DNA of 26,086 nucleotides, from IMG/VR virus record IMGVR_UViG_3300047378_000633, positions 1 through 26,086 of that record; one strand, given 5' to 3'. Made by a program: the position numbers and the translations under genes. The notes under the pieces are model-generated. The model made no database searches, had not been told where the DNA came from, and saw only the letters and a program-made list of their open reading frames with translations. Position 1 is the first letter of the stretch. Each line of letters starts with the position of its first letter. Source of the DNA: a virus. Shown one piece after another: positions 3,001-25,728 of this stretch.

Positions 3001-4571
3001 TTATATCTTTTAGAAAAATGAGAATCCGCTAATGTACAATCACTCATATCTAAAAACGTATAAGGATTCGAAGTATTGATACCGAATATAGTGGTATATT
3101 TATTTCTACCTTGTGAATAATCATCAATTACAATCCTACTGCGATATGATTGAGCGCTATATGGTATGATTTCCCCATTTCTTATTGCTCCTGCTAATGC
3201 AGCTGCTATTTGAGAAGTGTTTCCTTGACATGAATATCTACCCTCAGAATACGTTCCAATCGGTAATGTTTCGTCTGCTATAAATATGAAATCTCCTAGA
3301 TTAAACCTTTCTATAGAGATTTCTAAAAGATCTCCTAAAAATATTTTATCATTATGAACAGGCGGTTGCGTCAGTGAAAATTTCATAAATCCATTAAAGG
3401 CTTTCTTGTCTACGAATGGAGTTTCTATTTCATTTTCTTTCTTAGCAGTAAACTTGTTAGAATCTCCCTTAAATGAAGTAGAAATAAACATATTACCGAA
3501 CGATAAATTATAATTTTCAAAAGAATTTTTTATGTGATGATAATTACCTTCATTATCTTTGACCCAGCTCAATATCGGAAGACTAGATTCAGATTCATTA
3601 GGAATAATTTTTAAATCCTCAGATTCATCATCTATTAAATTTAAGACTCCAAATTTACTTACATTCTCAACTGAGACAGTTCCTTCTTCATGCTCATCAA
3701 CATATATTCCAAAATATCTATAAATGTTATAATCTTCTGCATCTTCATCATCAAAGAGAAATTCAATATTCATTACATTAGCTGAAATAATACCATTTCT
3801 TTCAAAACTTGATGTAATAGCATTGTTTGCTAATATCTCTGGAAGATCTTCTCTTATATAATCATCGTCTATATAATCTATTTTATTGACAAAACCACCT
3901 ATCATCGCATCTATTCCCGAAAAATGAGTAGGTTCATCTATTTCAAAATTAAAAGAAAGGTGTGAACTTGGAAAAAGAGGATCTTCTATGTGGCTATTTA
4001 AATATGCTCCTAATTTAGAGTTATTAGTAAGATCAAATGATTTAATAATAGTAGCCTTCGAAAGCATTTCTTGAATCCTATTATTTTGACCATCGGCATC
4101 TTCTGTATATTTTTTAGAAAAATTAACATCTTCTATTCTGTATATTATAAATTTACTGGGGACCTTGTCTTCTAACCAAATAGGAGCAAGTATTCTATAT
4201 TGTTCATCATACACTTTAGTGTAATTAAAGGATGCTCCATAGTTATATAAATTTTCATACTGTGAAGAAAAATCCGCACTAACAGCTAAATCAGTATGCT
4301 CTCTACCTACTTGATATCTTTTATCTTTTGGTAATTTTCCATAGAAAAGAGCAACATCTCTATTATATTGACCAAAGTCAGATAGTGGATATTTTTGAAA
4401 TTCAACTTGTGAGAGAGTTCTACTAGCCTTAATAGAGCTTAGGTAAATATCTCCTAAAGAATCTGCAACTAACTTAATATTAGAAGTTAATTTTGGATTA
4501 GTTCTTAGTAAAGCAAATGATTTGTTTTTAACCAAACTATTCTTTGCCGCTGTGTTAATAATTTTCGCCAT
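1..4571 (-). CDS. Giant virion-associated protein, C-terminus cut by window edge
   Basis: The reading frame opens at an ATG (4571-4569) with the N-terminus MAKIINTAAKNSLVKNKSFA and stays open for 1523 codons to base 3, with no stop, so the gene continues off the left edge. I do not recognise the family. The translation is acidic and rich in D, E, S, N, Y and F, reads as beta-rich, and shows no signal peptide or obvious membrane segment. A Gly-rich stretch (GFLEFGGQGAAGASSWEED) sits near bases 1310-1370. It is the last gene of the baseplate cluster, downstream of the coiled-coil and Fn3-bearing proteins, which suggests a peripheral baseplate or fibre component. This is inference from position and size. 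The 57-base leader holds a GATATATA motif and a short inverted repeat. Plus-strand frames at 874-1080 and 1954-2241 lie inside it and look like shadows. Confidence 0.85.
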   Translation of the reverse strand, partial: MAKIINTAAKNSLVKNKSFALLRTNPKLTSNIKLVADSLGDIYLSSIKASRTLSQVEFQKYPLSDFGQYNRDVALFYGKLPKDKRYQVGREHTDLAVSADFSSQYENLYNYGASFNYTKVYDEQYRILAPIWLEDKVPSKFIIYRIEDVNFSKKYTEDADGQNNRIQEMLSKATIIKSFDLTNNSKLGAYLNSHIEDPLFPSSHLSFNFEIDEPTHFSGIDAMIGGFVNKIDYIDDDYIREDLPEILANNAITSSFERNGIISANVMNIEFLFDDEDAEDYNIYRYFGIYVDEHEEGTVSVENVSKFGVLNLIDDESEDLKIIPNESESSLPILSWVKDNEGNYHHIKNSFENYNLSFGNMFISTSFKGDSNKFTAKKENEIETPFVDKKAFNGFMKFSLTQPPVHNDKIFLGDLLEISIERFNLGDFIFIADETLPIGTYSEGRYSCQGNTSQIAAALAGAIRNGEIIPYSAQSYRSRIVIDDYSQGRNKYTTIFGINTSNPYTFLDMSDCTLADSHFSKRYNEFINEGGIVSGDLSIGDYSIYTMSGGCAIDQGLVVSSKDVGNINVGDYVKYDRKDKFTRIIEIIRDPLNAEEFRVIFEKPIKFTRRVFSTYNPYKTPFGKFSAYDFKDFDFDFYSTTNSDVTHLEFESENYKEDESSFSVSSASYTEIINSNGGSGFSGVPQSNSEGEWSIVIHGLFVDEFIKKGDFLKSAIDQEYVKVLNVTSNLSLSYGQEISTKLILSGEPNPEYAILASDIDNSSKFIFIPGDENLDLFQFKKLANIIEDDSTEGDSSEIEIASEYDRLNENSLKETSINSRVVPTICKFALKEGTAINSRNLPYILNANEAFGIDNLSADISIINDRDSDKLNMEHFLIWNIPSYLRDSDKIPYLRDYINPTDEKMSYSDISSKLKDVDYDYFSAFLNFTGASDLNGDWVDAMTKRLYTSFTSGDSLSFSSTVFKGLRYIYKERKEFSLSQPISFSASSEINDYKYSTVLCYTDVPKAQEIVSESRADFEFIKNDKFKTITLLIHLTIPENEITEFDRYLSYTLTDIKDATTGEIIDSSVRGFLEFGGQGAAGASSWEEDTKLLTASIASVGNNQPKFTEDIFKIDGEYAYLKFNIPGYSSSQQFGMKVVSVVDDNNIIVSGTPGAVQTNDDGSIYLSFNLSPTDASNISNSVVLSYDKGGRSGWENVLKDVVAPGMAERINSNSNITYTTISEEGVESTGLYTIEIQDGVEFIKTSILTAETDDDKPKAFKLSNNEIGHDLVAREDGGYYTNLRRMNGEYNPLFRSVIEFTPPYRSKKIEDSIPSFGSLEEMDEFMWEQSKYNNLSEVNCVFASYLKIDNMFGIIPNFFYHKVNEEGSDVLKLSQETDKQPLYPLIGEIAIDKKNLNLFNSKYTKDYYTRSYEGGKNIKVNGTLSPIEERSFFASTIMKVKNQYDITAYHTSRVFSLRDLDVVRYDEKENVNTVYIFEDRNKVYMDFYIVESIVKELKEDNIVGHYGKYVNVANSYGDKTTIE

Positions 4572-4628: not shown

Positions 4629-7600
4629 TTACCTGTATGGGCGAGCGTCAAAGTCGTATAATCTAGAGGATGAAAAATCTGTATATCCGCTACTAGAGTT
4701 GAAGAATCTTCTTCTATTCCACCACCATCCACCAGAACCTGAGCTACTTCTATAACTTTGTAGCATTACTTTATTGATACTATTCTTATTAGTACCAACT
4801 GCTCTGTATTTAGCATATACTTCGATATCAAACTTAAATTCAGATTTATACGTGTCTAAGATGTCTATCCCTATTTTTTTAGAATAAGTTAAATTAGCAA
4901 AAGAATTTCCATATATACCACCTATTCTACCTTTACCACTTTCATCTTCTCCAAAATAATCTGTCATTCTATATTGAAATACCATATCTACTGAAACAGC
5001 ATTCTGACTTCCACCTTCTACTATTTTCTTACCATACTTATTAGGTCCATCTACTGATAGGCTAGTTTGATTTATAGGTGAAAGATATAAGAAAGATCCG
5101 CACGAAAGACCACCTAATAAATATTGATCATCTTCCGTAAATGAATTCTTAACAGATTTTCTAGGAATAACCGTACCTGATTCATCCTTAGGTCCGGATT
5201 CTGATCCATCCCTAAATGTAATAGCCAAAGGCTGATATGGCGTTTGTATTTTTCCGTTTTGGTCATTGGCTCTTTTAACTGCGTACTTAGGCATTGAAAC
5301 TATTCCAGTTGTCACCATTTCAAACACATTTAATCTATTGTCAGGGTCAATTCCTCCCTCATCGGCGTCTTTAATAAGTGGATGAAATTTAGATAAAAAT
5401 AAACCTTTATCATATTCACTAGAACCCAGCGTTGTTATCGAAATTAAATCTAGTTCAGAATTATTAGCAGAGCTTTCTACATTACCTCCACCGTATGTTC
5501 CGTTCCATATAAAATCTGATCCGTTTGATGTTGGGCTATTAGTTAATTGACATGTCATAGTACTAGAATCAGCTCCACTAAAATCTCGTAAATGCGTTCT
5601 ATCGGCAATACTACCTGGAGTAAATAGTGTATTACCACCATTGTTATTTCTTATTGGATAACTTAAACCATATTCTGCAGTAGTAACTCCGTTTGTTACG
5701 GCATGAGAAGATCCCGTATCTGCATTTGTTGTAAGGTATAAATTACCATTATTAGATATATTTTTAAATCTAGAATATATGAATTGCCCATTTAATTGTG
5801 AAGATTGTTCTGGTGCCGTAGCAAAATAATTATAAGAATTACCATCTCCAGTTAAGTTTTGATAAACTAAAGGAACTTGATCATATTTTCCTTCTGTCAT
5901 ATAGTATGTATCATTAGATATCATATCATCAGGACCAGCATTTGAAGCTAGCTTCATGTTACCTGTTTCTAGATCTATTATACCTAATCCATAATCTTGT
6001 TGACTTGTTGAAACATAGGCAGGTTGTTTAAGATCTCCAACGATTCTTGCACATAGTTCTAAGTCAGATGCCTTGGTGTTATGTAATTCAACTGTAAAGT
6101 TTTTAGTAACAACATATCCTTTGCTAATTCCCGTAGGTGCATTGTCTACATAATATCCTGCAAATATTTTAGCGGTAGTGTTGTTTTTAACCATAGTGGC
6201 AACTCCTTCTTCATCTACAATTTTAACTTGTAGTTCTCCAACAGTACCTTCTACTTTAGATTGTAATCTTTCTAATTGATTCTGTAATTCTAATAATTTT
6301 TCATAAACACTAATAGGATTCTGTTCTCCGGTTAAAAATCCTGATGCAAGGCTTTCAGCGCCATGTGCATAGTATGTATCACCTGCTGTAAAGCCAGTAT
6401 CAAGGTGTGTAAATAAATTCTGAGATTCTAAATCATCATTTATTTCAACTTTAACATTATCTAGATCGTTTTGATTTACGAGTGAATTAGCTCCGTCAGT
6501 TGCTATTACTCCTTCAGGGAATGGAATACTAATAATTTCGGACCATTCTGATTCTACTGGAGTCGTAGGAAAACCTGCTTCAGAAACAGATTTTACCATC
6601 ATTTCGATAACTTCGCCTTGTCTTATCGGTAAATCTATAGAATTAAAGTTAATAGCCTGTGCATCTTCTTCAGATTCTATAATCCATCTATAACCACCGT
6701 CTGCTTGCTTTTCTCTTTTTCTAACAGGACCTTTAACTTCTACCCAGTTTGAAAATGCAGCAGTTTTTTTATTAAATTTAATTTGCTCAATCACGGAAGT
6801 TTTTCCAGTAGAAGATGCATACCTATATCTTGCGATAAACTGAACTACTTCTTGTGAAACTTCATCTCCAACTTTTTTAGCATCTGGAATTGACCAGAAA
6901 CCTCTAACTCTATATTTAGGAGAAGCTTTGGGTAATTCATTAGATTCTGCAATGGCTTTAATTTCACTAACGCTAGAAGAAAATACCTTTGTCTCAGCTG
7001 CTTTTTCTCTAATTAAAGAAGATAGTTCGTTCTTCTCTCTATTTCTTTCAATTTTAGATGAGAATTTTTTAGTAGCAATTAACTTTCTTTTTTTCTTAAT
7101 AGTAGAATCAAGTTTTTTAACAGCTTCCTTTGCAGCGACCTTATCTGATTTAATCTGCTTAACCTTCTGAACACTTGCGTTTTCAGTAAGGTGTTTATTT
7201 ATCTGAGTAACCTTAAAGTTATCAGATTCAATAATCGGTGCATCTGGGATAAGACCTTCCGATGCAGGCGGAATATAATCTACTTTAAGTGCTTTAATGA
7301 ATTGTCCAAAGTCAGCAACCTCTTCTTTGTAATATTTAGCGAGAGATGTTATTACACCTTCTTCGTTTTGAATAGTTAATTCATTGGAAAAGAACGCAAT
7401 TCCTGGTGAAAAATCAGTTGAAGGAATTTTAGAAATAGGATCAATTGGCTTAACAAAAACAACTTGTCTTTCATTAAATCCAACTTTAATTTCAATATCA
7501 ACAGATAAATCAATGTCTTTATAAATTCTTAGAGAATCTGCACCAATCTTTACAGGAACATATCCTTCTAATAGTTCTAAACCTACTTGAGATGTTGAAG

Positions 7601-8450
7601 CATCGATAGAGGTTATTTTATATCTTGTGTTATATTCTTTATTGTTTACTACTAATGAATCACCTATCTTTAAAGATTCAGTGTCTTTCATTCTTTTATT
7701 AGCATCAGAATATGTTAACTTATTTAAAGTATAAACTTTAATCGTCTTAGTTTGACTAACACCGTCTACCATGACGGTCTTCTGAACATTCTCAACCTTT
7801 AATACATCTAGGCCTCCTGTATATTGAATAGACCTAATTGGCATATCAACAGTCTCTGCATCGATTCTGTATTTTAAACCAGCTTCTTCAATTTTAGAAA
7901 CAAAACTTTCGTAATTAATATCATTTTCACCTTTATAAATTTCATCAAAGGATTCAGTCGATGCAATATCTTCATGATCAAAAATAAATCTTTCAGTGTA
8001 TATTCTTTCAGTGTCTACCGGAATCTGTCCTTTAACATCTAAACTTATTGTTAATAACGGGTTTAAGAAATCTTCAAAGAAATCGTTTAATTTAGTATTA
8101 AATTCTTTAGGAGTTGCAAGAGATGTTACGGGTAAAGAAGGTCCTTTTAATTTAGAAGTATGTATTTTTCTATAAGATCCATCTTTAAGTTTAACATTTG
8201 CACTTGAAGTGTCTAGTCCACTAATTGCAGTTAAATTCTTATCAATTCTTTCAATCTCTCTTTTCAAAAATCCAAATGCTGGAATTTGAATCGCTGTCAT
8301 TTTTCCTGTGCGATTATCGAATAGGTCAATGGTAACTGTTTCTTTATCTGTAGAAATAGCCTCATTGATACGCTCAAAAGTTTCTAGTGAATTAGTGTTT
8401 AATTCTAGAAACTGTTCGAGTAAATGTGATATAGAATTACTAGCGCTCAT
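4629..8450 (-). CDS. Large baseplate/fibre-region protein with Fn3-like domain and coiled coils
   Basis: This 1273-residue protein is unidentified at family level, but several parts can be seen. Residues 1-75 are helical. Residues 100-345 are beta-rich. Residues about 415-500 form a highly charged Lys-rich coiled coil (KKLDSTIKKKRKLIATKKF). Residues about 510-645 resemble a fibronectin type III domain (the YRVRGFWSIPD strand, then EVIEMMVKSVSEAG and ESEWSEIISIPFPEG). A second short coiled coil follows at about 712-740 (YEKLLELQNQLERLQSK). The C-terminal 500 residues are rich in G, S, N and Y and read as beta structure, ending in the odd tail GGWWWNRRRFFNSSSGY. Fn3 domains occur in many phage tail-tip and fibre proteins. 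Start ATG lies one base after the upstream stop, so the two are probably translationally coupled. A peripheral baseplate or fibre-anchoring role is inferred. Confidence 0.85.
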   Translation of the reverse strand: MSASNSISHLLEQFLELNTNSLETFERINEAISTDKETVTIDLFDNRTGKMTAIQIPAFGFLKREIERIDKNLTAISGLDTSSANVKLKDGSYRKIHTSKLKGPSLPVTSLATPKEFNTKLNDFFEDFLNPLLTISLDVKGQIPVDTERIYTERFIFDHEDIASTESFDEIYKGENDINYESFVSKIEEAGLKYRIDAETVDMPIRSIQYTGGLDVLKVENVQKTVMVDGVSQTKTIKVYTLNKLTYSDANKRMKDTESLKIGDSLVVNNKEYNTRYKITSIDASTSQVGLELLEGYVPVKIGADSLRIYKDIDLSVDIEIKVGFNERQVVFVKPIDPISKIPSTDFSPGIAFFSNELTIQNEEGVITSLAKYYKEEVADFGQFIKALKVDYIPPASEGLIPDAPIIESDNFKVTQINKHLTENASVQKVKQIKSDKVAAKEAVKKLDSTIKKKRKLIATKKFSSKIERNREKNELSSLIREKAAETKVFSSSVSEIKAIAESNELPKASPKYRVRGFWSIPDAKKVGDEVSQEVVQFIARYRYASSTGKTSVIEQIKFNKKTAAFSNWVEVKGPVRKREKQADGGYRWIIESEEDAQAINFNSIDLPIRQGEVIEMMVKSVSEAGFPTTPVESEWSEIISIPFPEGVIATDGANSLVNQNDLDNVKVEINDDLESQNLFTHLDTGFTAGDTYYAHGAESLASGFLTGEQNPISVYEKLLELQNQLERLQSKVEGTVGELQVKIVDEEGVATMVKNNTTAKIFAGYYVDNAPTGISKGYVVTKNFTVELHNTKASDLELCARIVGDLKQPAYVSTSQQDYGLGIIDLETGNMKLASNAGPDDMISNDTYYMTEGKYDQVPLVYQNLTGDGNSYNYFATAPEQSSQLNGQFIYSRFKNISNNGNLYLTTNADTGSSHAVTNGVTTAEYGLSYPIRNNNGGNTLFTPGSIADRTHLRDFSGADSSTMTCQLTNSPTSNGSDFIWNGTYGGGNVESSANNSELDLISITTLGSSEYDKGLFLSKFHPLIKDADEGGIDPDNRLNVFEMVTTGIVSMPKYAVKRANDQNGKIQTPYQPLAITFRDGSESGPKDESGTVIPRKSVKNSFTEDDQYLLGGLSCGSFLYLSPINQTSLSVDGPNKYGKKIVEGGSQNAVSVDMVFQYRMTDYFGEDESGKGRIGGIYGNSFANLTYSKKIGIDILDTYKSEFKFDIEVYAKYRAVGTNKNSINKVMLQSYRSSSGSGGWWWNRRRFFNSSSGYTDFSSSRLYDFDARPYR

Positions 8451-13948: not shown

Positions 13949-14218
13949 TTATCTAATTTTTTTATCGTTCTTTTTAATAGTGTAAGATTTATAACTCTTT
14001 AAATAATTCACAGAGTCTACCCAATCAGCCAACACCTCTTGAATAAACTTTATAAAATCATTCATTTGGTTATTTCTCCATATATGACCAGATATAGAAT
14101 TCTTTAAAATGTTTTTTCTATAATCATTTCCAAGATTTTTTCTATCGTCAAATACACTTTCCCTAATAGAGTATAGCCTTTCTCTTCTGCTTTTAAAAAG
14201 ATTTTTAAAAATACTCAT
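13949..14218 (-). CDS. Small basic protein of the wedge module, unknown function
   Basis: 89 residues, strongly basic, with a helical N-terminus (FKNLFKSRRERLYSIRESVF) and a Trp-containing middle (GHIWRNNQMNDFIKFIQEVL), ending in a Lys/Arg tail. No family is recognised. Its ATG overlaps the stop of the gp6-like gene as TAATG (14220-14216), and the next gene starts two bases after its stop, so it lies in a translationally coupled trio between gp6 and gp7. That position suggests a small wedge or assembly factor, but the role is inferred only from context. Conservation cannot be judged here. Confidence 0.7.
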   Translation of the reverse strand: MSIFKNLFKSRRERLYSIRESVFDDRKNLGNDYRKNILKNSISGHIWRNNQMNDFIKFIQEVLADWVDSVNYLKSYKSYTIKKNDKKIR

Positions 14219-16038
14219 TATATAGCTTTTCTATTTTTAGCTTGAACTTTAGCAAATATGCTATTTTTCACAGCTGGTTCATCAAAGTAAATTGAAAGAG
14301 CTGCTTTTTCCCCAGTCTTTACTGAATCATCCACCATGTTTCCATTTTGATCTAACCATCCACCTCTAAACAATGCAACTTCTTCTTTTTCTAAAATTAT
14401 ATCTCCAAAAGAATCTAAATTAATTACATTCTCCGGAAGAGCAGCGCCTTCTTCAAAATTAACCTGTGAGGTAGTTACGTTTCTTTTAAAGAAAACCATT
14501 TTTTGTTTTCCGTTACCTATATCCTCTAATAGTGGAGTAGAAGGCGTTACGGTTACTGTTTTAGAAATATAATATCCTAATCTTCTAGCTGTTTCTTCTT
14601 TTTCAGAAGTGAATTTAACGTTAACGGAATCAATACCTTCAATACCTTCAATAATTGCTACTATATCTGATTTTGGAAGACGATCTCTTCTTGTAATATT
14701 AATTAAGTATTCAGCGACCTTAGATCTAATTTCAGATGATAGGTTATTTTTATGATATCCTTCAAAATATCTAACCTTAATATCCATTCTAAAGTATTGC
14801 GGTAAAGGATCTACTATTTTAACTTCAGTCGTTACCATCTGTCTTCCTGATTTTTCTAATAATCCCATAATTCCTTCTTTTTCTATTTCAGTAAAAAAGA
14901 ATTCAGAAGTATCTAAGCTAAAATAATCTTTATTGTTTTGTAATTTTTTAAGAGTATTAGGCAACATGAATAGATAGATAACATTATCATCGTCTAAATA
15001 TCCATCGTCTGTAGTATTATATGCATCTAAATATGAAAACAAGCCGTATCTTGAAAGAAAGTGCTCATAGTTATCTGGGGTTGCTAGTACAAATGAATGT
15101 GACTGTAATGGGGCAATTAATTTTGTTAATGCAATATCTTCTGGATTTGCTCCCATTTTAGGAGCGACTGTAAACGAAAATTCTAATAATTCGTTTAAGT
15201 CATGTGTGTTTCCTAAAGAATCTGTTCCTTCAGTTTCAAACTTAAATGTCAAATCAGCTCTACCGTTTAAATTACCCATAGCACCGGAAATCTTTAAATA
15301 TTCTACTTTAATCGAAGCTCCCTTTTCAGGTATTTCTCCAAATGAACCATTACCAAAATAAAGATCTAATCCACCTGTTATACCTGTTTTCACAATGTAA
15401 CCCTGTGTTCCTTTCTTCATATCATACAGTGAATCATATTTTGACCACAAATTAGAATTAACGGTTACTCTAATTTGATCATGATCAACCATTCCTTTTG
15501 TTATTACGTTAAATGACTGAAATGACTCCCCTGTTGAAGTTAATGTTTGATCTTCATATTCTCCTTGAACTACGGGAACATATATGAAATTAGAATTAGA
15601 TTTGTCTAATCTAAATTGATCATTATTGGTTCTTAAAGTATACACTAGACCATTATCATTTGATTTTATAATAGCATTAGCGGGAATGTTTAAAGCATCT
15701 CCTGCAATATCATCTAATCCCTGTACACCTAATCTCAGCTTTAATTCACCAGAAGCGGCAGCTCCTCTAAATGAATCATGTCCTGCTAATCTTGAAAGGC
15801 CATAAATTGATTCTGGGTTTTGAGCTGTTAGTATATTTTGCTCAACCGTTGAGTCTTCTATATAGAAGAAGATTAATTTTCCTATTTCTGAAATAACATC
15901 TAGTAATTGTGAAAAAGGAGAAGCGGTTGTAAATGCAGTTCCTACTGCACCATATACCCTGCTAACATACGATCTCACATCTGAGATCATTTCTCCAGTT
16001 TTAATTCTAGACGTTGATAAAAAGTTATTATCTGCCAT
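14218..16038 (-). CDS. gp6: Baseplate wedge protein gp6 / gpJ family (Baseplate J-like)
   Basis: This 606-residue protein fits the gp6/Baseplate_J family in length and layout (T4 gp6 is about 660 residues). Residues 1-75 are the helical entry (ASPFSQLLDVISEIGKLIFF, then an EQN segment), followed by the family-typical NPESIYGLSRLAGHDSFRGA and then a jelly-like beta region. In the middle is GLDLYFGNGSFGEIPEKGAS, matching the conserved FGDG-type loop of J proteins. Further on come AEYLINITRRDRLPKSDIVA and IEGIDSVNVKF, typical of the C-terminal domain that fits VSDI/GV-type strands. In T4, gp6 dimers link neighbouring wedges into the baseplate iris. It lies directly after gp25, as gpJ follows gpW in P2. 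Its stop overlaps the next start. The leader is A-rich (AATAAAACAAAAAAGTAAA). Confidence 0.88.
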   Translation of the reverse strand: MADNNFLSTSRIKTGEMISDVRSYVSRVYGAVGTAFTTASPFSQLLDVISEIGKLIFFYIEDSTVEQNILTAQNPESIYGLSRLAGHDSFRGAAASGELKLRLGVQGLDDIAGDALNIPANAIIKSNDNGLVYTLRTNNDQFRLDKSNSNFIYVPVVQGEYEDQTLTSTGESFQSFNVITKGMVDHDQIRVTVNSNLWSKYDSLYDMKKGTQGYIVKTGITGGLDLYFGNGSFGEIPEKGASIKVEYLKISGAMGNLNGRADLTFKFETEGTDSLGNTHDLNELLEFSFTVAPKMGANPEDIALTKLIAPLQSHSFVLATPDNYEHFLSRYGLFSYLDAYNTTDDGYLDDDNVIYLFMLPNTLKKLQNNKDYFSLDTSEFFFTEIEKEGIMGLLEKSGRQMVTTEVKIVDPLPQYFRMDIKVRYFEGYHKNNLSSEIRSKVAEYLINITRRDRLPKSDIVAIIEGIEGIDSVNVKFTSEKEETARRLGYYISKTVTVTPSTPLLEDIGNGKQKMVFFKRNVTTSQVNFEEGAALPENVINLDSFGDIILEKEEVALFRGGWLDQNGNMVDDSVKTGEKAALSIYFDEPAVKNSIFAKVQAKNRKAI

Positions 16039-16055: not shown

Positions 16056-16409
16056 TTATACATAGACACCTACTTGATATTTGTTGTCTACTCTTATATC
16101 TATAAAGACTGCATGTCTGTCGACTTCTTTAGTAAAGTCAACGTCTACAGTCACGTTAAATTTTTGCGCAAGTGGACAGAATTGAAAAATCTGTTCTGCT
16201 ACCACTTTTTTTAATAAATAGTCATTATAACTTAATGAATATACATAGTCTTCTAAATTAGCACCAAATTCTGGATTACCTAGAACATCACCCTTTCTTG
16301 TAAAAAGAACTGTTTCAATCTGCGTTAACAGTCTTGAAAGTTCTGAATAGTTTTCCATCTCAGTTGGATCGAAACCAGGATCTCCTTGCGCTTTTATATA
16401 AAACTCCAT
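16056..16409 (-). CDS. gp25: Baseplate wedge protein gp25 (GPW/gp25 family)
   Basis: 117 residues, close to the usual gp25 length (about 130). The conserved core is visible: ELSRLLTQIETVLFTRKGDV followed by GNPEFGANLEDYVYSLS at about residues 41-60, then a helix (LLKKVVAEQIFQFCP) and a beta hairpin carrying VTVDVDF and the AVFIDIRVDN strand. gp25 is among the most conserved baseplate proteins in contractile tails. It sits at the wedge core with gp6 and gp7 and contacts the first sheath layer. Its gene lies 17 bases upstream of the gp6-like gene, the expected W-J order. Despite the historical name (gp25-like lysozyme), no catalytic lysozyme signature is seen. Confidence 0.92.
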   Translation of the reverse strand: MEFYIKAQGDPGFDPTEMENYSELSRLLTQIETVLFTRKGDVLGNPEFGANLEDYVYSLSYNDYLLKKVVAEQIFQFCPLAQKFNVTVDVDFTKEVDRHAVFIDIRVDNKYQVGVYV

Positions 16410-16425
16410 TTAACTATATATTCTA

Positions 16426-17259
16426 TTAAGAATGCATCATCCAATCGGTGCCTTCATCTGATTTAATTTCTTCAATAACAGCTTCTAATTCTCCTTCTCC
16501 TAATCCCTGTATTGCATCTGCATTTACCTCTATATTTCCTGGCAATGCAAATCCAAAGATACTTAACTTTTGGCCAAGTGATATTTTAATCTTTGCAGCG
16601 CAATATCTAAAGAATGCTTCATCTTCAAATAATGCACACTCTGGAATTGTTTCATATACTTCTAATATAATATCTCTATTAGGGGTTTCTCCAGTAAATT
16701 TAATCTCATGTGTTAGTTGGTTATAGTGATAGCCAATGGGGTTTTCTAGAATTTGTCTAGCCATATCAAAGAAACTTTCATTAACCACGTAATATTGAAG
16801 GTTCTCTGCTGCATCTACTACACCATCTCCACCGAACATTCCAGTATACATCATTCTTTCGATAGCAAAATCACCTTGTGAAAATCTAATATCTGTTCCA
16901 CCCGCATACTTTGATCCGGTTTCAAAACATCCATATACTGAATAAACTTCTCCACCACCTGTAACTGGATCCATCTTTGGAAGAGTAAAGCATCTTCTAG
17001 ATTTAAAAAGATTAGACTCAAAAAGTTCTTTAGGCAAAACCATAAAGTTTTCTTTCATTGAATACTCGTAATTTTTATAGAACCATTTCTTTGCTCTCTT
17101 GACAATATTCTCTACTTCTGATTTTGGAAGATTCATAGGAATCATACAAGACCCTGTTACCTCTGATGCCAACTCATTTACAAAGTTGTTAAAGCATACA
17201 TTATCATCCCAAGTAGGCTTATTTAAATGGCTATTATTACCTATTATATTATCACTCAT
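16426..17259 (-). CDS. Virion structural protein, neck- or baseplate-associated, family uncertain
   Basis: 277 residues. The N-terminal half contains a helical segment (LPKSEVENIVKRAKKWFYKN, 44-63), then KENFMVLPKELFESN and an RRCFTLP strand (about 69-94), followed by a Gly-rich variable loop (GTDIRFSQGDFAIERM). The C-terminal half has IILEVYETIPE, a helical AFFRYCAAKIKISLGQKL, and an acidic helical end (EGELEAVIEEIKSDEG). The overall look, a compact mixed domain with an acidic helical tail, resembles proteins often annotated as structural or neck proteins of large marine myoviruses, but I cannot name a family with confidence. It sits between the amidoligase and gp25 genes (16-base gaps on both sides), so a baseplate or tail-completion role is inferred. 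Confidence 0.8.
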   Translation of the reverse strand: MSDNIIGNNSHLNKPTWDDNVCFNNFVNELASEVTGSCMIPMNLPKSEVENIVKRAKKWFYKNYEYSMKENFMVLPKELFESNLFKSRRCFTLPKMDPVTGGGEVYSVYGCFETGSKYAGGTDIRFSQGDFAIERMMYTGMFGGDGVVDAAENLQYYVVNESFFDMARQILENPIGYHYNQLTHEIKFTGETPNRDIILEVYETIPECALFEDEAFFRYCAAKIKISLGQKLSIFGFALPGNIEVNADAIQGLGEGELEAVIEEIKSDEGTDWMMHS

Positions 17260-17275
17260 TTTATTTTAGTTATTT

Positions 17276-18571
17276 TTAAACTTCCGTATAAAGTATTTTT
17301 TCAGTGTTGTCAAACTTTGCAGTTCTTTTATCGTATTTACCGTCTCTAAATATACCTCCTTGCATCGTCCCTTTCATTATTCCATTTCCGTATACGTAAC
17401 AATCTTTTAAAACACAAGACTGATGAACGTATGAACTTTCTAATTTAGATGAATTAATCTGTGTAGATTGATAAAAGTTACAAGTGTGAATATCAGATCC
17501 ATTTATGTCACAGCTAAAGAAATCACAATTTGTAAATTCTCCTCTTAAAGAACATCTTACAAATTCATATCCTTCTAATTCTACGCAATATGATAAGTTA
17601 CCATGATCTACTTGAATTGTCCCGTTATCTGCATCATAGTTAATATGTCCCTTTGTTAATTCACCATGTGTAAATAACCTAAGAACTCTTTCTCTAATAT
17701 TAGGCCAGTGTAAATCTATTATTTTTTCATTGTCATTTAAATCAACCGTTAATTTAACATCTTGATTCCAACCTACATTAATAGTTTTCCAATCTTTTCT
17801 AGCCTTTATAATTCTTTCATTTTTTGCAAGAATTTTTCTAAGCTCTATTGAATTAAGATTGTCAAATTGAACACCACTAGTACTATTCCATAATTGAGTT
17901 ATAAAAAGATCTAGCATTTGTAGAATCTTAGAAGTTTTCTTTTCCCAATCTGCTCCACCTAAGTATCTAAATTCTAAATAATTTTTATGTCTTTTTTCAA
18001 AGTTAATTCCATAATATTTAGAATCGGGATATATGAAATTACTAGGAGTAATATTTAATCCATCATAGAAATAAGTATCTGACTTAGGTAAAACGAATTT
18101 AATTGACTTTGCGTATGCAGAATCTTTTCTTTCTGGGAAAAACTTAAAAACTTGGCTTTCTTTAAAATCTAAAATAAATTTAAGAACATTCATTTTAGAT
18201 ATTCTGTGCTTATTCTCTATTTTATCAGTATCGAAAGAAAGGTTTAAGTGAATAGAACTTCTATCATTAGTATACCCATTTTCTTCTATCCATTTACATA
18301 CTTTAATAATCATCATTCTTGCAGCATAATACGGCTGTGCTCCCGTTACAAGTTCCATTAGTTTTTCACCACCTGACATATCAGGTTCAATTTTAAACTC
18401 ATCCCTTGTAACTTCAAAGTCACTATGTGCCTTTGCCTCTACTCTAATTTTTTTACCTAAAAGACCTGCTAATTCCTTAGCAGTCGTATCGATATCCTTA
18501 TTAGAATAAAATTCAAATTCAACACCTACTAGTGCGTTCTTTAATATGTCTGAATTATTAATATTATTCAT
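17276..18571 (-). CDS. GS-like amidoligase with C-terminal pentapeptide-repeat tail
   Basis: 431 residues in two parts. Residues 12-230 have the motif series of glutamine-synthetase-like COOH-NH2 ligases (Amidoligase_2 type): GVEFEFY (16-22, paired metal-binding acids), KIEPDMSGGEKLMELVTG (60-77, with a Glu after the EPDMS turn), SSIHLNLSF (105-113, the HxH-type position reduced to one His) and NYLEFRYLGG (197-206, the EFR triad). Known family members use ATP to join a carboxylate to an amine, often on peptides or proteins. Residues about 337-410 show five-residue periodicity (TNCDF, FSCDI, NGSDI, HTCNF, NSSKL, ESSYV, HQSCV), indicating a right-handed pentapeptide beta-helix with several Cys. 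The gene follows a terminator and has its own promoter-like motif. The substrate is unknown; a virion or host protein, or the cell wall, are possibilities. The fold call is fairly confident, activity is inferred. Confidence 0.78.
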   Translation of the reverse strand: MNNINNSDILKNALVGVEFEFYSNKDIDTTAKELAGLLGKKIRVEAKAHSDFEVTRDEFKIEPDMSGGEKLMELVTGAQPYYAARMMIIKVCKWIEENGYTNDRSSIHLNLSFDTDKIENKHRISKMNVLKFILDFKESQVFKFFPERKDSAYAKSIKFVLPKSDTYFYDGLNITPSNFIYPDSKYYGINFEKRHKNYLEFRYLGGADWEKKTSKILQMLDLFITQLWNSTSGVQFDNLNSIELRKILAKNERIIKARKDWKTINVGWNQDVKLTVDLNDNEKIIDLHWPNIRERVLRLFTHGELTKGHINYDADNGTIQVDHGNLSYCVELEGYEFVRCSLRGEFTNCDFFSCDINGSDIHTCNFYQSTQINSSKLESSYVHQSCVLKDCYVYGNGIMKGTMQGGIFRDGKYDKRTAKFDNTEKILYTEV

Positions 18572-18676: not shown

Positions 18677-20002
18677 TTATAGTTTAAGGAATACTTTTCT
18701 AGTGTCTTCTTCAACTCTGATCACTTGGACAGTAATATCTGCACCTTTCGATATGTCTTTAATATCTATGTTTTCAGGGAATTCAGATACATGTAAGAGT
18801 CCTACAACACCTTCTTCTATTTCTACAAATAAACCATAGTCTTTAGTAGATTTTACCTTTCCTACTACTTCAGTTTTCTTAGTATATCTTGAAGAAATAC
18901 CTTCCCATGGATCTACTTTCTTTTCAGCAGGAGAACCTTGAACAAGTGTAATTTTTCTTTCATTAATAACTTCCTTAACATAGAATTTAATTTCTGTTCC
19001 TGGCTCTAAAGATCTGTCTCTATGTGCCTTTGAAGTTTCAGTATCTAAGTCGTTAACGTGAATCATACCTGTTAAACATCCTTCAAACTCAACGAATACA
19101 CCGTATTTTGCAGAACCGGTAACATGACCTGTTCTTTCAACTGTAATATCCTCTTGTATTGTTTTAAGTGTATTAGGAATAAGTGCTCTTAAATATGCTC
19201 TATGTGAAACTACAACAGTTCCTTTTTCTTCTGAATAACTCACAGGTACTACATACATTTCTGTGCCGATGATTGATTCAAAGTCATGTAATTTATTTAC
19301 ACCTGCTAAAGAACCTGGCATAAAGCAATCAATTCCTTGAACCTGAACAATATATCCTCCACCTGGAATCATTTTAGAAACAATACCGCTGTATGCTGTA
19401 TTCCCATCATCAATAGATGCTACGATTTCTTTAATAACTTTAGTCTTAAGACCTTCAGTTACAGAACCTATCATATATTTCTTGACATTCATTGAAGTAT
19501 CGGCAGTCAATTGAACATCAACTTCAGCTCCTTCTTTTAAAAGTTCTTTTACTTCTGCAGTTTCTCTTGACAAATCTACATAGATTAATTCTCTATACCC
19601 TACGTCAATTGACGCCCATTCAGAATCAACGCCATACACCTTTCCAGTGTAACTAGCGCCTAATTGTAAAGAATATAAAGTGTTAGAAGTTAATGAATGA
19701 CCTTCCATTAGATCAAATAACTCTTGAGCATACGGCTCTCTACTATATACCTTTACTCCTTTAGGTACTTTAATATGTGGATTTGGTTTTCTAAACTTAG
19801 TGGGGCAATCCGCCTGATAAAGATCCCACATGAATTCTCCATTTTCATCTAGAAAATCAGTGTCAGGTCCTGGCGTTAATTTTTCTGGGGTTGCTTTGTT
19901 TAGAGAAGTTTCTACTTTAACTTCTGTTTCTTGATTAGCTTCTTTAAGCTGTGTAGTTGTTGAGAGTCTTGGTCTCTTTTGTTTAGTTGTCTTTGTTGAC
20001 AT
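18677..20002 (-). CDS. Ribosomal protein S1-like protein with four S1 RNA-binding domains
   Basis: 441 residues. The N-terminal 110 residues are polar and low-complexity at first, then carry DENGEFMWDLYQADCP, resembling the acidic FDWD-type entry of Bacteroidota S1 proteins. Four S1 (OB-fold) repeats follow, at about 114-180, 202-268, 287-355 and 376-441. Repeats 3 and 4 are canonical (GHVTGSAKYGVFVEFEG, and GKVKSTKDYGLFVEIEEG then VGLLHVSEF). Repeat 2 carries GIDCFMPGSLAG and TVVVSHRAYLRAL, close to what I recall of the second domain of bacterial S1. The linker DPWEGI is also S1-like. Bacterial S1 usually has six domains: the first two dock on the 30S subunit, later ones bind mRNA. So this looks like a shortened S1 keeping the docking pair and two RNA-binding domains. 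It may steer ribosomes to phage mRNA; that role is inferred. A promoter-like motif precedes it and a terminator follows. Confidence 0.9.
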   Translation of the reverse strand: MSTKTTKQKRPRLSTTTQLKEANQETEVKVETSLNKATPEKLTPGPDTDFLDENGEFMWDLYQADCPTKFRKPNPHIKVPKGVKVYSREPYAQELFDLMEGHSLTSNTLYSLQLGASYTGKVYGVDSEWASIDVGYRELIYVDLSRETAEVKELLKEGAEVDVQLTADTSMNVKKYMIGSVTEGLKTKVIKEIVASIDDGNTAYSGIVSKMIPGGGYIVQVQGIDCFMPGSLAGVNKLHDFESIIGTEMYVVPVSYSEEKGTVVVSHRAYLRALIPNTLKTIQEDITVERTGHVTGSAKYGVFVEFEGCLTGMIHVNDLDTETSKAHRDRSLEPGTEIKFYVKEVINERKITLVQGSPAEKKVDPWEGISSRYTKKTEVVGKVKSTKDYGLFVEIEEGVVGLLHVSEFPENIDIKDISKGADITVQVIRVEEDTRKVFLKL

Positions 20003-20041: not shown

Positions 20042-20050
20042 TTATATATC
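20042..20050 (-). promoter_or_regulatory. Possible promoter element GATATATAA before the S1-like gene
   Basis: The minus strand reads GATATATAA, overlapping the TGA stop of the 571-residue gene, with its first base 48 bases before the S1-like start. The identical 9-mer lies before the amidoligase gene and an 8-of-9 match before the giant left-edge gene. These three gaps (46, 105 and 57 bases) are the only long ones in the window. The leader ends in TTTTAAAAACAAAGTAA, with no Shine-Dalgarno. Confidence 0.33.
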
Positions 20051-21764
20051 AAATTACGGTGGCGTCAAATCCTATCATTGGAACGTAAGGAACAGTAGGA
20101 ACTGGTATACCGCCCATATAAATAAATTTCATTTCACTAAGATGCGTAAAATAAGAATATGCAAGTGCTTTAGCCACTGCATTGGCTGCACCTTCCCTAT
20201 CTAATCCATAATCTTTACCTGAATTAAGAGCTCTTCTTAAATTATCTGCTAATTTCCTTTGATTTCCGTAACTAACTCCTATGTATTTTCCGCCTAAAGG
20301 AGGAACAGATAAACATGGTGGTGTCGGGGGATCAGTTGCAAATGGCTGTATTGTTGCATCTTTCCAATATTTAAGAGTTGCCTTTGCAAGTTCTTTATAT
20401 GGATCATCTTTACTTCCACCTTCTGCTAACATTGCAGCTTCAATTCCCATTTCTACTATTAAAGTATTTCTAATTTGCTTAGCTAAAGTTCCCGTCTTAG
20501 ACATATCTATATTCACAATAGAATCCTGTGTTTCGTCGTTTTCAGTAAGAGGACATCCTTGCCATTTTTTTCTTAATTCATCTTCTAGAAAAACGGGTTT
20601 AACTTTATTTTTTTTAAAACCATAGTCTTGTTTACCGTTCCACGTAAATTCTGTAATAACATACTGAGTTAATGCAGGTGGCATTTTATTATTTTCATCA
20701 AAAGGCTCCTGTATTTTTAAATTAGTTAATTTAAATGGATATCTTACTTTTAATTTTTCAGCAGGTTCCATTTCTTCATATCCTACGGGTAATGTAGTAT
20801 CAAAGGGCCATGGATATTTAATAGCTTGTATAGGATCTTTCTTTAATGCAGTTTCATCATTGTATAAAAACTTTCCATCACTATCTACAGTTGGATGACA
20901 CTTCCTTATTTCATCAATTACATATTTAGAAACTAGTAGATGAAATTCTCCATCACTATTTTTATTATTATTATTTACTGAAAAACCCGAGGAAGATTTA
21001 AATGATTGCCAACCCCAGTCTAATCCCTTTAGTGTAGATATAGCCGCCTTCCTGTTATTGTTCATCTGCTGAATGTCTTGATTACTAAACCCATCACTAA
21101 CACCACTAGTGGTTCTGCTTCTAATTTCGTTAGTTCCCATCCAAGTCGCCCAGTGCCAAAAATCCCATCTTTTATCTCCGTCAGAAATATCCTCAAATTG
21201 CATTAATAATCTTGTTGCAAATATTCTAGCTAATTCATCGCCGGTTTCTTTACCATCTAAGCGATGAAACTCGAAGAATTTAAATCTATATAGGTTTTCT
21301 GCTTCGTCATCCTTAAACTCTTCCAGATACTTGTCAAGCTCTTCAGTTGGCTCGTATTGTATACCTCCTGAAATTTCACCTTCTAGTTTATTATATTCAG
21401 GATCATTGTCTTTTCCTGCAATACTTAACCTGGAAGCTGCGCCAGCTGCACTCGCCAACCACGTTGCAATTCCTATTTTCTTTTCTTCGGTGTCTGGTGT
21501 TTCCATGACAGGTTCTCCTTTTTCAAAAAGGTCAGTGAACCAATGTTCATAGCTTGCTATGAATGCACTCTCCCCGGGTGATGATTCATGAGGTGCCATT
21601 CCTGGAATACACGTTGCATTAGGACCAGAACCTTTTTTAACATCAATCGTATATTGTGTGGCTAATAATTTACCGAATTCTGCGGCACTAGTCGGTGGGG
21701 CAGTAGGTGCGCTTAAAAGAAATCCTTCTACTTCACTAATAAAATTAGTCCAATCTGCAGCCAT
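20049..21764 (-). CDS. Virion-associated protein of unknown function, next to the spike gene
   Basis: 571 residues, no recognised family. The N-terminus (1-60) is Ala/Pro/Thr-rich with EFGKLLATQYTIDVKKG; residues 60-115 include a Trp-containing helical stretch and an Ala-rich helix (IATWLASAAGAASRL). Residues 150-250 are helical and rich in aromatic residues (FKFFEFHRLDG and WDFWHWATWMG). The middle (260-420) is mixed alpha/beta with YPWPFDTTLP. The C-terminus (450-571) reads as helices followed by a Pro/Gly-rich end (FIYMGGIPVPTVPYVPMIGF). There is no signal peptide and no lysozyme motif I can point to. Start lies two bases after the spike stop, so it is co-translated with the hub and spike genes. 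It may belong to the central tail axis or be delivered with the spike. That is inference from position only. Confidence 0.82.
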   Translation of the reverse strand: MAADWTNFISEVEGFLLSAPTAPPTSAAEFGKLLATQYTIDVKKGSGPNATCIPGMAPHESSPGESAFIASYEHWFTDLFEKGEPVMETPDTEEKKIGIATWLASAAGAASRLSIAGKDNDPEYNKLEGEISGGIQYEPTEELDKYLEEFKDDEAENLYRFKFFEFHRLDGKETGDELARIFATRLLMQFEDISDGDKRWDFWHWATWMGTNEIRSRTTSGVSDGFSNQDIQQMNNNRKAAISTLKGLDWGWQSFKSSSGFSVNNNNKNSDGEFHLLVSKYVIDEIRKCHPTVDSDGKFLYNDETALKKDPIQAIKYPWPFDTTLPVGYEEMEPAEKLKVRYPFKLTNLKIQEPFDENNKMPPALTQYVITEFTWNGKQDYGFKKNKVKPVFLEDELRKKWQGCPLTENDETQDSIVNIDMSKTGTLAKQIRNTLIVEMGIEAAMLAEGGSKDDPYKELAKATLKYWKDATIQPFATDPPTPPCLSVPPLGGKYIGVSYGNQRKLADNLRRALNSGKDYGLDREGAANAVAKALAYSYFTHLSEMKFIYMGGIPVPTVPYVPMIGFDATVI

Positions 21765-21766
21765 TC

Positions 21767-22492
21767 TTATTTATTTTCTTGTTGATAATCAGGGTGTTTA
21801 CTTTTCAAAGATGCAACACCCGATGGGGTAGGAGGTAATGAAACCGCAGTTCCTGATGGACCCACTCCGGTTGGATGTATATGGTTTTCAAAAAGAGTTA
21901 AATACTCGTCTAACCATGCTTCTAGTGATTTACCCCTTACAGCGGGTTCTGAAGTATCTTCTCCACTTTCACCTGTATTACTTAAATATACGTCTCCTGA
22001 ATCTATGAATATTCTATCGTCCGTAGAAATTTTAATATCACCTACTTCATCTATTTGTATTATAGGTCTTTCTTTTGCACCGCTTCCTCTTGTAATTATA
22101 AGACCATCTTCTTCTGAGTGATAAATTCTTACGTTTCTTTCAGCGTCATATACTAGACTTATTACATTTTCAGCATTGCCAGCTCCTTCTAATATATCTG
22201 TTTTAAGATCTTCGTTTTGATCTATATGAAACCAATATTCAGGATGATATAAATTACCATTATCAAATCTAGCTGAAACTATATCTCCTATTCTAGGAAC
22301 CTGGTGAGAACCTACTGCGTTTCTATTCATAGGAGTTGCCCATGGAATAGCATCATCTGGTAAATTATCAAACTTTCCTAAAACTTTAACCTTACATCTA
22401 CCCAGTTTAAGAGGATCGACATTGTCGATAACTTCTCCTAACCAATGTGTGTCTCTAAGATTATCAGTATTTAATTCCTTTTCAGTTGACAT
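21767..22492 (-). CDS. gp5: Baseplate central spike, gp5/gpV-like OB-fold protein without lysozyme domain
   Basis: 241 residues. Residues about 15-90 form the gp5/gpV OB-fold: WLGEVIDNVDPLKLGRCKVK, then DAIPWATPM and RIGDIVSARFDNGNLYHPEY, matching the family's V-D-N-D-P-x-x-x-G-R and I-P-W-A motifs. Residues about 105-175 are short beta repeats (IIQIDEVGDIKIS, then RIFIDSGDVYLSN), fitting a trimeric beta-helix spike. A short helix (LEAWLDEYLTLFENH) leads to HIHP at 204-207 and a Gly/Pro-rich end. The His-x-His resembles the metal-binding tip of P2-type spikes, though here it is 35 residues from the C-terminus. T4 gp5 (about 575 residues) has an internal lysozyme domain that is absent here. 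It sits just after the hub and tube-initiator genes, as expected for the membrane-piercing device. Confidence 0.88.
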   Translation of the reverse strand: MSTEKELNTDNLRDTHWLGEVIDNVDPLKLGRCKVKVLGKFDNLPDDAIPWATPMNRNAVGSHQVPRIGDIVSARFDNGNLYHPEYWFHIDQNEDLKTDILEGAGNAENVISLVYDAERNVRIYHSEEDGLIITRGSGAKERPIIQIDEVGDIKISTDDRIFIDSGDVYLSNTGESGEDTSEPAVRGKSLEAWLDEYLTLFENHIHPTGVGPSGTAVSLPPTPSGVASLKSKHPDYQQENK

Positions 22493-25260: not shown

Positions 25261-25728
25261 TTAAATTCTTATTTCCCCGTTACTTACTTCGATATTAACT
25301 TCTCCAGTCTTTAATATATTAGGAGGTAATATTTCTTTATTATATTTCTTACTTAAATATTCAATTCTATTTGCATCTTTAACAGGGAGCCTTTTAGTAT
25401 TTATGAATTGATCTCTTATCGGATTTTTCTCGTCTTTATTTAATGTTAATTTCCATTTCTTTTTACCATAATCTTTAGGTGGAATGTATAATACATCACC
25501 TTCTATAATAGAAAAGGGATTAGATATTCCATTAAACTTTAAAATAATGTCAATATAATCATGAGATCCATATTCTGATAAAGACACTAGATCTATTCTA
25601 CCGGTCTCATCATTACTTACGATATGAATATCCTGTACTCTCGTTGAATCTGCAAAAATAAGAGTAGGAGCACTCATAGACAGTTTATTATCTATGATTT
25701 TCTTTTTATCTATAGAATATATTTTCAT
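25261..25728 (-). CDS. gp53: LysM-like baseplate wedge protein (gp53-like)
   Basis: 155 residues. The signature is IDLVSLSEYGSHDYIDIILK (45-64) followed by FNGISNPFSIIEGDVLYIPP (65-84). This is the LysM-like motif of T4 gp53, in which a small LysM fold packs against the wedge core rather than binding peptidoglycan freely. T4 gp53 is about 196 residues, so this is somewhat short. The C-terminal part is Lys-rich (KKWKLTLNKDEKNPIRDQF) and ends in a beta strand. One base separates its start from the stop of the upstream gene. In T4, gene 53 and gene 5 are neighbours, which fits the order seen here. Confidence 0.82.
   Translation of the reverse strand: MKIYSIDKKKIIDNKLSMSAPTLIFADSTRVQDIHIVSNDETGRIDLVSLSEYGSHDYIDIILKFNGISNPFSIIEGDVLYIPPKDYGKKKWKLTLNKDEKNPIRDQFINTKRLPVKDANRIEYLSKKYNKEILPPNILKTGEVNIEVSNGEIRI

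What the first reader, a model, noticed from the sequence alone, without database searches (positions are those of the whole stretch)
18677..20002. Ribosomal protein S1 homologue inside a phage baseplate operon
The sequence shows four S1 repeats, the last two canonical, and an S1-like N-terminal entry and DPWEGI linker. Viral ribosomal proteins have been reported, but a multi-domain S1 nested among baseplate genes is unusual. Bacteroidota mRNAs largely lack Shine-Dalgarno sites, which would make S1-type mRNA capture a natural point for a phage to take over. The protein seems to keep the two ribosome-docking domains plus two RNA-binding domains, so it could act as a competitor or replacement for host S1.
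Basis: partly seen in the sequence, partly recalled or inferred. Interest (0 to 1): 0.85.

Follow-up and report, generated by a model that had tools for sequence, protein, structure and literature searches.

The report
Phage-encoded ribosomal protein S1 homologue
A family of large marine viruses of bacteria carries its own shortened copy of the ribosome's mRNA-catching protein S1 among its tail genes, often together with a second ribosomal protein (S21), probably so that infected cells translate the virus's own messages, which lack the usual start signal.

Summary
The ORF is real: 18677-20002 (-), 441 aa. It aligns collinearly with domains D1-D4 of ribosomal protein bS1 (E 6.5e-39) and lies among baseplate genes of a jumbo-type phage. 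In contigs found by the downstream gene, S1 lies upstream in 72 of 73 usable cases. The 21 phage S1s sampled, including Prevotella Lak phages and 462-735 kb megaphages, form one clade outside the sampled host S1s: an old phage lineage. An N-terminal F-x-W-x-x-[FYH] motif is shared with Bacteroidota S1s (5 of 5) and absent from 10 of 10 other S1s. bS21 is encoded in 16 of 27 S1-bearing records. Genes of these phages show no Shine-Dalgarno enrichment; T4 does. Phage rpS1 in huge phages was already reported (Al-Shayeb 2020), so this is a new variant of a known kind. Best reading: a phage bS1 docks on the Bacteroidota 30S late in infection and promotes SD-less phage mRNAs. Docking, timing, host and effect are inferred.

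The parts
18677..20002 (-). bS1-like protein, 441 aa, four S1/OB domains (residues about 117-167, 204-266, 290-354, 377-440)
19817..19834 (-). N-terminal F-x-W-x-x-Y motif (residues 57-62, FMWDLY) shared with Bacteroidota S1
   Evidence: codon span computed from residue numbers
19688..19729 (-). predicted helix (residues 92-105) before D1, in the place of the bS1 N-terminal anchoring helix; register against E. coli differs between alignments
18896..18913 (-). DPWEGI linker between D3 and D4 (residues 364-369)
20049..21764 (-). 571 aa protein of unknown function directly upstream (46 nt gap), variable between relatives
21767..22492 (-). baseplate hub / tail lysozyme-like protein (OB domain, PF04717)
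17276..18571 (-). 431 aa amidoligase-like protein downstream (105 nt gap), the anchor used for the synteny count
16426..17259 (-). head-tail connector Ad2-like
16056..16409 (-). gp25-like baseplate wedge subunit (weak match)
14218..16038 (-). gp6-like baseplate wedge subunit

Best explanation
The gene encodes a phage version of ribosomal protein bS1, cut down to the two ribosome-facing domains (D1, D2) and two RNA-binding domains (D3, D4). It is probably made late with the tail proteins. It would dock on the 30S platform of a Bacteroidota host through its N-terminal segment and D1, in place of the loosely bound host bS1, and feed Shine-Dalgarno-less, A-rich phage leaders to the ribosome. In many of these phages a phage bS21, the neighbour of bS1 on the platform, is encoded too. 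Shown here: homology, domain order, retained residues, N-terminal motif, single phage clade, conserved locus, bS21 co-occurrence, lack of Shine-Dalgarno enrichment. Inferred: host, ribosome docking, exchange with host bS1, late timing, preference for phage mRNA.
For: D1-D4 collinear with bS1. Positions equal to E. coli D2 F120/F130 are aromatic in 21 of 21 phage rows; the D1 K43 position is R or K in 18 of 21; D3 Y/F, F, H and D4 Y, F, H are kept in 13 of 13 marine rows; roles of the D1 and D2 residues from PMC10123108 and PMC4288201 (passages). N-terminal motif in 112 of 112 viral-contig S1 ORFs over 350 aa (30 of 30 representatives), 3 of 3 Lak-like, 5 of 5 Bacteroidota, 0 of 10 other S1s (nine bacterial, one PhiMa05); 0.4% in shuffles. 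bS21 in 16 of 27 distinct S1-bearing records; the tyrosine that in F. johnsoniae bS21 stacks on the anti-SD tail is kept in six of six phage bS21s aligned (role from PMC9723584 section 10 and PMC9976891 passages). No SD enrichment: 3 of 92 and 7 of 139 genes against 3.2 and 5.1 in shuffles; T4 22 of 44 against 3.0. Added F. johnsoniae bS1 gave a 2-fold larger initiation amplitude on one SD-less mRNA in vitro (PMC9976891 passage). The window's 1273 aa protein matches 31 phage records: 23 with recorded Bacteroidota hosts, 2 Sphingomonas, 6 without host. dN/dS about 0.09.
Against: D1-D4 do not place the protein with Bacteroidota S1; identity to ten cellular or PhiMa05 S1s is only 18-28% over aligned columns. 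It scores far under NCBI's cut-off for rpS1 (143.5 of 524 bits). The anchoring-helix register is uncertain. Lak S1s have Ser at the K43 position and lack D4. In the five LR megaphage S1s the motif is missing, the D4 Phe is Leu in four and the D4 His is lost in two. At the D39 position Bacteroidota S1s themselves have Asn, not the Asp of the marine phages. Eleven of 27 records show no bS21, though many are partial. The wedge protein has relatives in 501 records, mostly of enterobacterial phages, so it says little about the host. No expression or ribosome data exist here.
Confidence: 0.6

Rival explanations
1. Off-ribosome RNA protein: it binds phage mRNA or regulates an RNase, an RNA ligase or transcription, as host S1 does with T4 RegB or in Q-beta replicase.
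For: In a Lak phage the gene sits near an RNA ligase, a tRNA-His guanylyltransferase and DnaB (3 of 8 neighbours tested had a match). The K43 docking position is Ser there. Al-Shayeb et al. themselves leave 'on or off the ribosome' open (passage).
Against: D1 and D2 are kept, the D1 Asp/basic pair is kept in 13 of 13 marine rows, and the N-terminal segment is shared with Bacteroidota S1.
Confidence: 0.21
2. Host shut-off decoy: it occupies the bS1 site or host mRNA without delivering mRNA, blocking host translation.
For: Only four of six S1 domains are present, so it could dock but work poorly. E. coli ribosomes carrying a pelagiphage bS21 had about 5% activity (PMC6375957 passage).
Against: RNA-binding residues of D3 and D4 are kept in 13 of 13 marine rows, and a position among tail genes suggests expression too late for host shut-off (inference).
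Confidence: 0.1
3. Structural or virion protein: the OB folds serve in the baseplate.
For: 72 of 73 usable loci keep it in the baseplate block; a hub protein with its own OB domain is nearby.
Against: Five cultivated jumbo phages with a homologous wedge and 1273 aa protein (four with Bacteroidota hosts, and PAU, recorded for Sphingomonas) have no S1 domain match. In Lak-B5 S1 lies about 170 kb from the wedge gene. Conservation follows RNA-binding residues.
Confidence: 0.07
4. Host DNA mis-assembled or binned as virus.
For: Some phage-database records do carry host-type rpsA.
Against: Same phage gene order in 21 of 21 viral loci printed and 72 of 73; low identity to cellular S1s; one phage clade.
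Confidence: 0.01

Closest known systems
Bacterial ribosomal protein bS1 (rpsA)
   Same: Order and signature of D1-D4, RNA-binding residues of D3 and D4, DPW linker; in Bacteroidota also the N-terminal F-x-W-x-x-[FY] motif
   Different: Four domains instead of six, 22-28% identity to the cellular S1s compared, extended lysine-rich N-terminus with an inserted C-P...K-P-N...VYS segment, own clade
Possible rpS1 of huge phages (Al-Shayeb et al. 2020, PMC7162821, passages read)
   Same: Multi-S1-domain proteins in very large phages whose genes rarely have Shine-Dalgarno sites; the LR7565xx records appear to be from that set (735 kb genome; inferred from length)
   Different: Here: baseplate-block locus as a clade-wide feature, N-terminal Bacteroidota motif, one phage clade shown by tree, bS21 alongside in many records
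Phage bS21 (Chen et al. 2022, PMC9723584, abstract, two sections and passages; Mizuno et al. 2019, PMC6375957, passages)
   Same: Phage ribosomal protein of the 30S mRNA exit platform; in Chen et al. predicted Bacteroidetes hosts and a place among structural genes
   Different: The main text of Chen et al. has no occurrence of bS1, rpS1 or 'ribosomal protein S1'; here both proteins occur in one phage
bS1 of cyanophage PhiMa05 (PMC13157829, passages read)
   Same: Phage-encoded bS1
   Different: Outside this phage clade in the tree (on a long branch), no N-terminal motif, beside bL21/bL27

Membership tests
bS1 (30S ribosomal protein S1, NCBIfam equivalogs) | Score over the curated cut-off | tested here: not met
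   143.5 of 524 bits for the best model; four-domain length may explain part of it
bS1 (30S ribosomal protein S1, NCBIfam equivalogs) | Collinear D1-D2-D3-D4 with bS1-type D2 | tested here: met
bS1 (30S ribosomal protein S1, NCBIfam equivalogs) | uS2-contact residues (N-terminal helix aromatics, D39, K43) | tested here: inconclusive
   D39 and a basic K43 position kept in 13 of 13 marine rows; helix aligns as Y91=F5, Q93=Q7 in one alignment and is shifted in the other
bS1 (30S ribosomal protein S1, NCBIfam equivalogs) | RNA-binding residues in D3 and D4 | tested here: met
   13 of 13 marine-clade rows; choice of positions partly recalled
bS1 (30S ribosomal protein S1, NCBIfam equivalogs) | Association with the 30S subunit | not testable with these tools
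   needs ribosome co-purification
S1 RNA-binding domain (PF00575) | Pfam gathering score | tested here: met
   77 against 22 bits
Huge-phage rpS1 (Al-Shayeb 2020) | Multi-S1-domain protein in a large phage genome | tested here: met
   four OB domains; contigs up to 236 kb carry it; the window's own genome size is unknown
Huge-phage rpS1 (Al-Shayeb 2020) | Phage genes without Shine-Dalgarno sites | tested here: met
   with T4 and Prevotella controls
Baseplate structural protein | Present in phages with the homologous baseplate wedge | tested here: not met
   0 of 5 cultivated relatives have an S1 match

The most novel reading that the evidence does not exclude
Large Bacteroidota phages refit the host 30S platform with two of their own proteins, bS1 and bS21, making phage-specialised ribosomes for SD-less late mRNAs. 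The bS1 belongs to an old, phage-only lineage shared by marine jumbo phages, Lak phages and 462-735 kb megaphages, and its N-terminal F-x-W-x-x-[FYH] segment is the Bacteroidota-specific docking element.
Probability: 0.32. Interest if true: 0.78.

Novelty: new variant of a known kind. Interest (0 to 1): 0.52.

Why it matters
Bacteroidota ribosomes hide their anti-Shine-Dalgarno tail, so how they and their phages choose mRNAs is open. A phage that carries its own bS1, often with bS21, gives a natural tool to ask which platform proteins select mRNAs. It would also show ribosome takeover as a long-inherited trait of a large marine phage group rather than an occasional gene capture. The shared N-terminal motif gives a precise, testable docking candidate in host S1 as well.

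Tried and rejected
Host contamination: rejected, since gene order and clade are phage-specific. Generic nuclease or single S1 domain: rejected. The best model that is not an rpS1 is a single-domain RNA-binding protein at E 1e-15, PNPase 2.6e-11 and RNase R 2.4e-5, against 7e-42 for rpS1. Nesting in Bacteroidota S1: not found for D1-D4. Only Bacteroidales host S1s were available, no Flavobacteriia: the single genome-contig scan gave two loci and a viral-contig scan with a host S1 gave one fragment. S1 and bS21 as a universal pair: rejected, 11 of 27 records show no bS21. Baseplate locus as universal: rejected for Lak. In LR756501, LR756504, LR756502 and LR745206 the S1 gene lies over 100 kb from the wedge gene, although a tail sheath, a weak tail-tube match or homologues of the window's two largest proteins are near it. 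IF3 in the same phages: 3 of 20 records, none of them in the marine clade. Virion packaging through an N-terminal tag: the window's S1 is not among proteins with the tag. tRNAs: none in G001, three in G002, scanned in 20 kb pieces.

The profiles were built with rows of LR756500 among them, so its E-values for that phage are inflated; the direct blastp matches and the wedge match do not have this fault.

Full report
What is there. The ORF at 18677-20002 (-) is an intact 441 aa gene. All 17 non-overlapping ORFs of the window lie on the minus strand and include a tail/baseplate block: by PHROGs a sheath/wedge-like protein (25261-25728), hub/tail lysozyme (21767-22492), Ad2 connector (16426-17259), a weak gp25-like match (16056-16409) and a gp6-like wedge (14218-16038). 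The record is a 26,086 base IMG/VR virus contig. A 116,899 base contig carries the same region (S1 100% identical; 22,561 of 26,086 positions equal in a gapless overlay).

Identity of the protein. Pfam sees two S1 domains, but full-length comparison aligns residues 115-439 with E. coli bS1 18-341, i.e. D1 to D4 in order; 19 of the 21 matched distinct solved sequences are named ribosomal protein S1. NCBIfam rpS1 models match at 7e-42 but far below the cut-off (143.5 of 524 bits), so I call it a bS1 homologue, not a member of the rpS1 equivalog. AlphaFold2 on 32 aligned sequences gives four OB folds (pLDDT 75.7, pTM 0.49); Foldseek ranks 30S-bound bS1 first with low TM-scores, which I take to reflect flexible domain arrangement. 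In the marine clade the RNA-binding positions of D3 (Y/F300, F303, H315) and D4 (Y389, F392, H404) are kept in 13 of 13 rows. D2 F120/F130 equivalents are aromatic in 21 of 21 phage rows. The D1 equivalents of D39 and K43 are D and R/K in 13 of 13 marine rows; the five LR rows have K at K43 but only two D at D39; the three Lak-like rows have neither. Bacteroidota S1s have Asn and Lys there. In the LR rows D4 Phe is Leu in four of five and D4 His is lost in two. The E. coli D1 and D2 residues contact uS2 or mRNA according to PMC10123108 and PMC4288201 (passages read). The alignment of the N-terminal anchoring helix differs between two alignments, so I treat it as inconclusive.

Distribution and locus. 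In the 21 viral-contig loci printed, S1 is followed by the amidoligase-like gene directly (14) or after one gene (7), down to 50% S1 identity; hub and the 571 aa protein's homologue are upstream in most. In the 462 kb phage LR756500 (36% identity) the same order returns, with direct matches to eight window genes in the stretch printed and to the wedge at 42%. Starting from the amidoligase-like gene instead, 80 loci were fetched; 7 have under 2 kb upstream; of the other 73, S1 is upstream in 72 (adjacent in 39, one gene between in 26, two to six in 7) and not seen in one (L222, 2.1 kb upstream only). In the 635 and 642 kb phages S1 follows homologues of the window's two largest proteins; in LR756504 a tail sheath and an ssDNA-binding protein, and in LR756501 a weak tail-tube match, are near; in Lak-B5 three of eight neighbours tested match DnaB, tRNA-His guanylyltransferase and RNA ligase. 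So the baseplate position is a clade feature, not universal.

Ancestry. A tree of D1-D4 (36 rows, 323 columns) puts the 21 phage S1s in one clade (100/100), apart from 5 Bacteroidota S1s and 10 others including cyanophage PhiMa05. Long branches are present. Joining the phage clade with Bacteroidota is not rejected (AU p 0.116), nor is joining it with Proteobacteria (0.113); in the best tree its neighbour is a Fraserbacteria S1 at 73/82, with a long-branch warning; splitting the marine phages off to join Bacteroidota is rejected (p 1e-69). Local matches among plasmid-record S1s favour Proteobacteria (40 of 62 records listed). Hence an old phage lineage of uncertain cellular source. Independently, an N-terminal F-x-W-x-x-[FYH] motif occurs in 112 of 112 viral-contig S1 ORFs over 350 aa (30 of 30 representatives at 90%), in 3 of 3 Lak-like proteins and 5 of 5 Bacteroidales S1s, but in 0 of 10 other S1s (whole sequences checked) and 0 of 5 LR megaphage S1s; shuffled N-termini show it in 0.4%. 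Inheritance from Bacteroidota and adaptation to their ribosomes are both possible readings. One Bacteroidales S1 (L090) comes from an unlabelled faecal record and was taken as host by its 79-90% identity to named species.

Host. The window's 1273 aa protein matches 31 phage records: Prevotella 15, Tenacibaculum 5, Chryseobacterium 2, Flavobacterium 1, Sphingomonas 2, no host 6. This and the motif point to Bacteroidota; it is not proof. The wedge protein matches 501 records of many hosts; the listed best 30 are LR and Lak megaphages, then Tenacibaculum, Flavobacterium, Sphingomonas and Chryseobacterium phages.

Translation setting. With one ORF caller and one motif test (AGGA, GGAG or GAGG at -18 to -4), the 117 kb and 170 kb contigs have SD-like sites before 3 of 92 and 7 of 139 genes, as many as in shuffles (3.2, 5.1); LR756502 0 of 42, LR756500 0 of 38, Prevotella 1 of 26; T4 as positive control 22 of 44 against 3.0. 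Leaders are A-rich (54-55% A at -15 to -1 in the two contigs). bS21 is encoded in 16 of 27 distinct S1-bearing records (15 of 26, one more); several positives are near-identical strains. Six distinct phage bS21s were aligned and keep the tyrosine that stacks on the anti-SD tail in F. johnsoniae (PMC9723584 section 10; PMC9976891 passages). In E. coli bS21 helps hold bS1 (PMC10123108 passages).

Mechanism. I infer that the protein docks at the mRNA exit platform like bS1 and delivers SD-less phage mRNAs, late, when the tail genes are read. Late timing is inferred from the gene's place and from the bS21 precedent, where bS21 and structural genes were transcribed together (PMC9723584 abstract and section 18). 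A structural role is unlikely: five cultivated jumbo phages with a homologous wedge and 1273 aa protein (pT24, PTm1, MaF61, MA9V-1, PAU) gave no S1 match, by family profile or by Pfam S1. An off-ribosome RNA role remains open, above all for Lak proteins, which lack D4 and the basic docking residue.

Novelty. Al-Shayeb et al. 2020 (PMC7162821, passages) reported S1 proteins in huge phages, up to six domains, and that such phages rarely have SD sites. Mizuno 2019 mentions earlier hints of bS1 in viral metagenomes (passage). PhiMa05 carries bS1 (PMC13157829, passages). Searches for S1 with jumbo phage and baseplate, with Lak phage, and with phage-encoded, Shine-Dalgarno and Bacteroid listed 1, 1 and 2 papers, none titled or abstracted on the baseplate locus, the motif or the S1 clade; the library is partial and supplements were not read. 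So: a new variant of a known kind, in a sharper and testable form.

Noticed in passing
record behind L003 (G001) 104122-104319; L128; also L127, L129, L130, L159-L169, L252: bS21 gene in the same phages, about 19 kb from S1 in G001, with DnaJ-like and PhoH-like genes (named by eye) close by; C-terminal tyrosine of the Bacteroidota type kept in six of six aligned.
   Followed up: partly
L083 8118-27703; G001 37888-39541; G002 62300-63953; L086 13190-18379: Many unrelated ORFs share an N-terminal tag like MKxIxxYxEFLNE: 8 of 42 ORFs in 33 kb of LR756500, 5 of 57 in LR756501, 6 of 119 in G001, 7 of 187 in G002, but 0-1 in the other three megaphage stretches and Lak-B5; internal-Met background 0-1%. 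It recalls T4 capsid-targeting sequences of injected internal proteins (recalled, no call; the T4 stretch tested gave 0 of 80), so these may be packaged proteins. The window's S1 lacks the tag.
   Followed up: partly
window 17276-18571: Very conserved 431 aa protein (39-98% identity, dN/dS 0.05-0.07) with an amidoligase-like N-terminus and, by eye, a Cys-rich repeat-like C-terminus; homologues also in four 635-735 kb phages away from S1. Function unknown.
   Followed up: partly
L059 8444-9601 (-): Opposite-strand gene beside S1 that reads like a CCA-adding tRNA nucleotidyltransferase (by eye), and other variable genes flank S1 in several relatives: an insertion-prone spot.
   Followed up: no
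L092: 3.4 kb contig in an 'uncultured Clostridium' MAG carries a Lak-like S1; probably a misbinned phage contig.
   Followed up: no
L154 (MW495066.1): Around the PhiMa05 rpsA lie ispH, rplU, rpmA, ispD, thiL, ruvA and trpS, a bacterial-looking gene set in a phage record.
   Followed up: no
L090 (MT835643.1), hits H4, H5, H27, H31, H33: Several records filed as phages carry what looks like host rpsA (by record name, annotation or match), a pitfall for surveys of phage S1.
   Followed up: partly
window 4629-8450 and 3-4571: Two very large proteins in PHROGs families without function. The 1273 aa one is shared with 31 phage records, 23 with Bacteroidota hosts; the 1523 aa one, cut by the window's end, has relatives next to S1 in LR756502 and LR745206.
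   Followed up: partly
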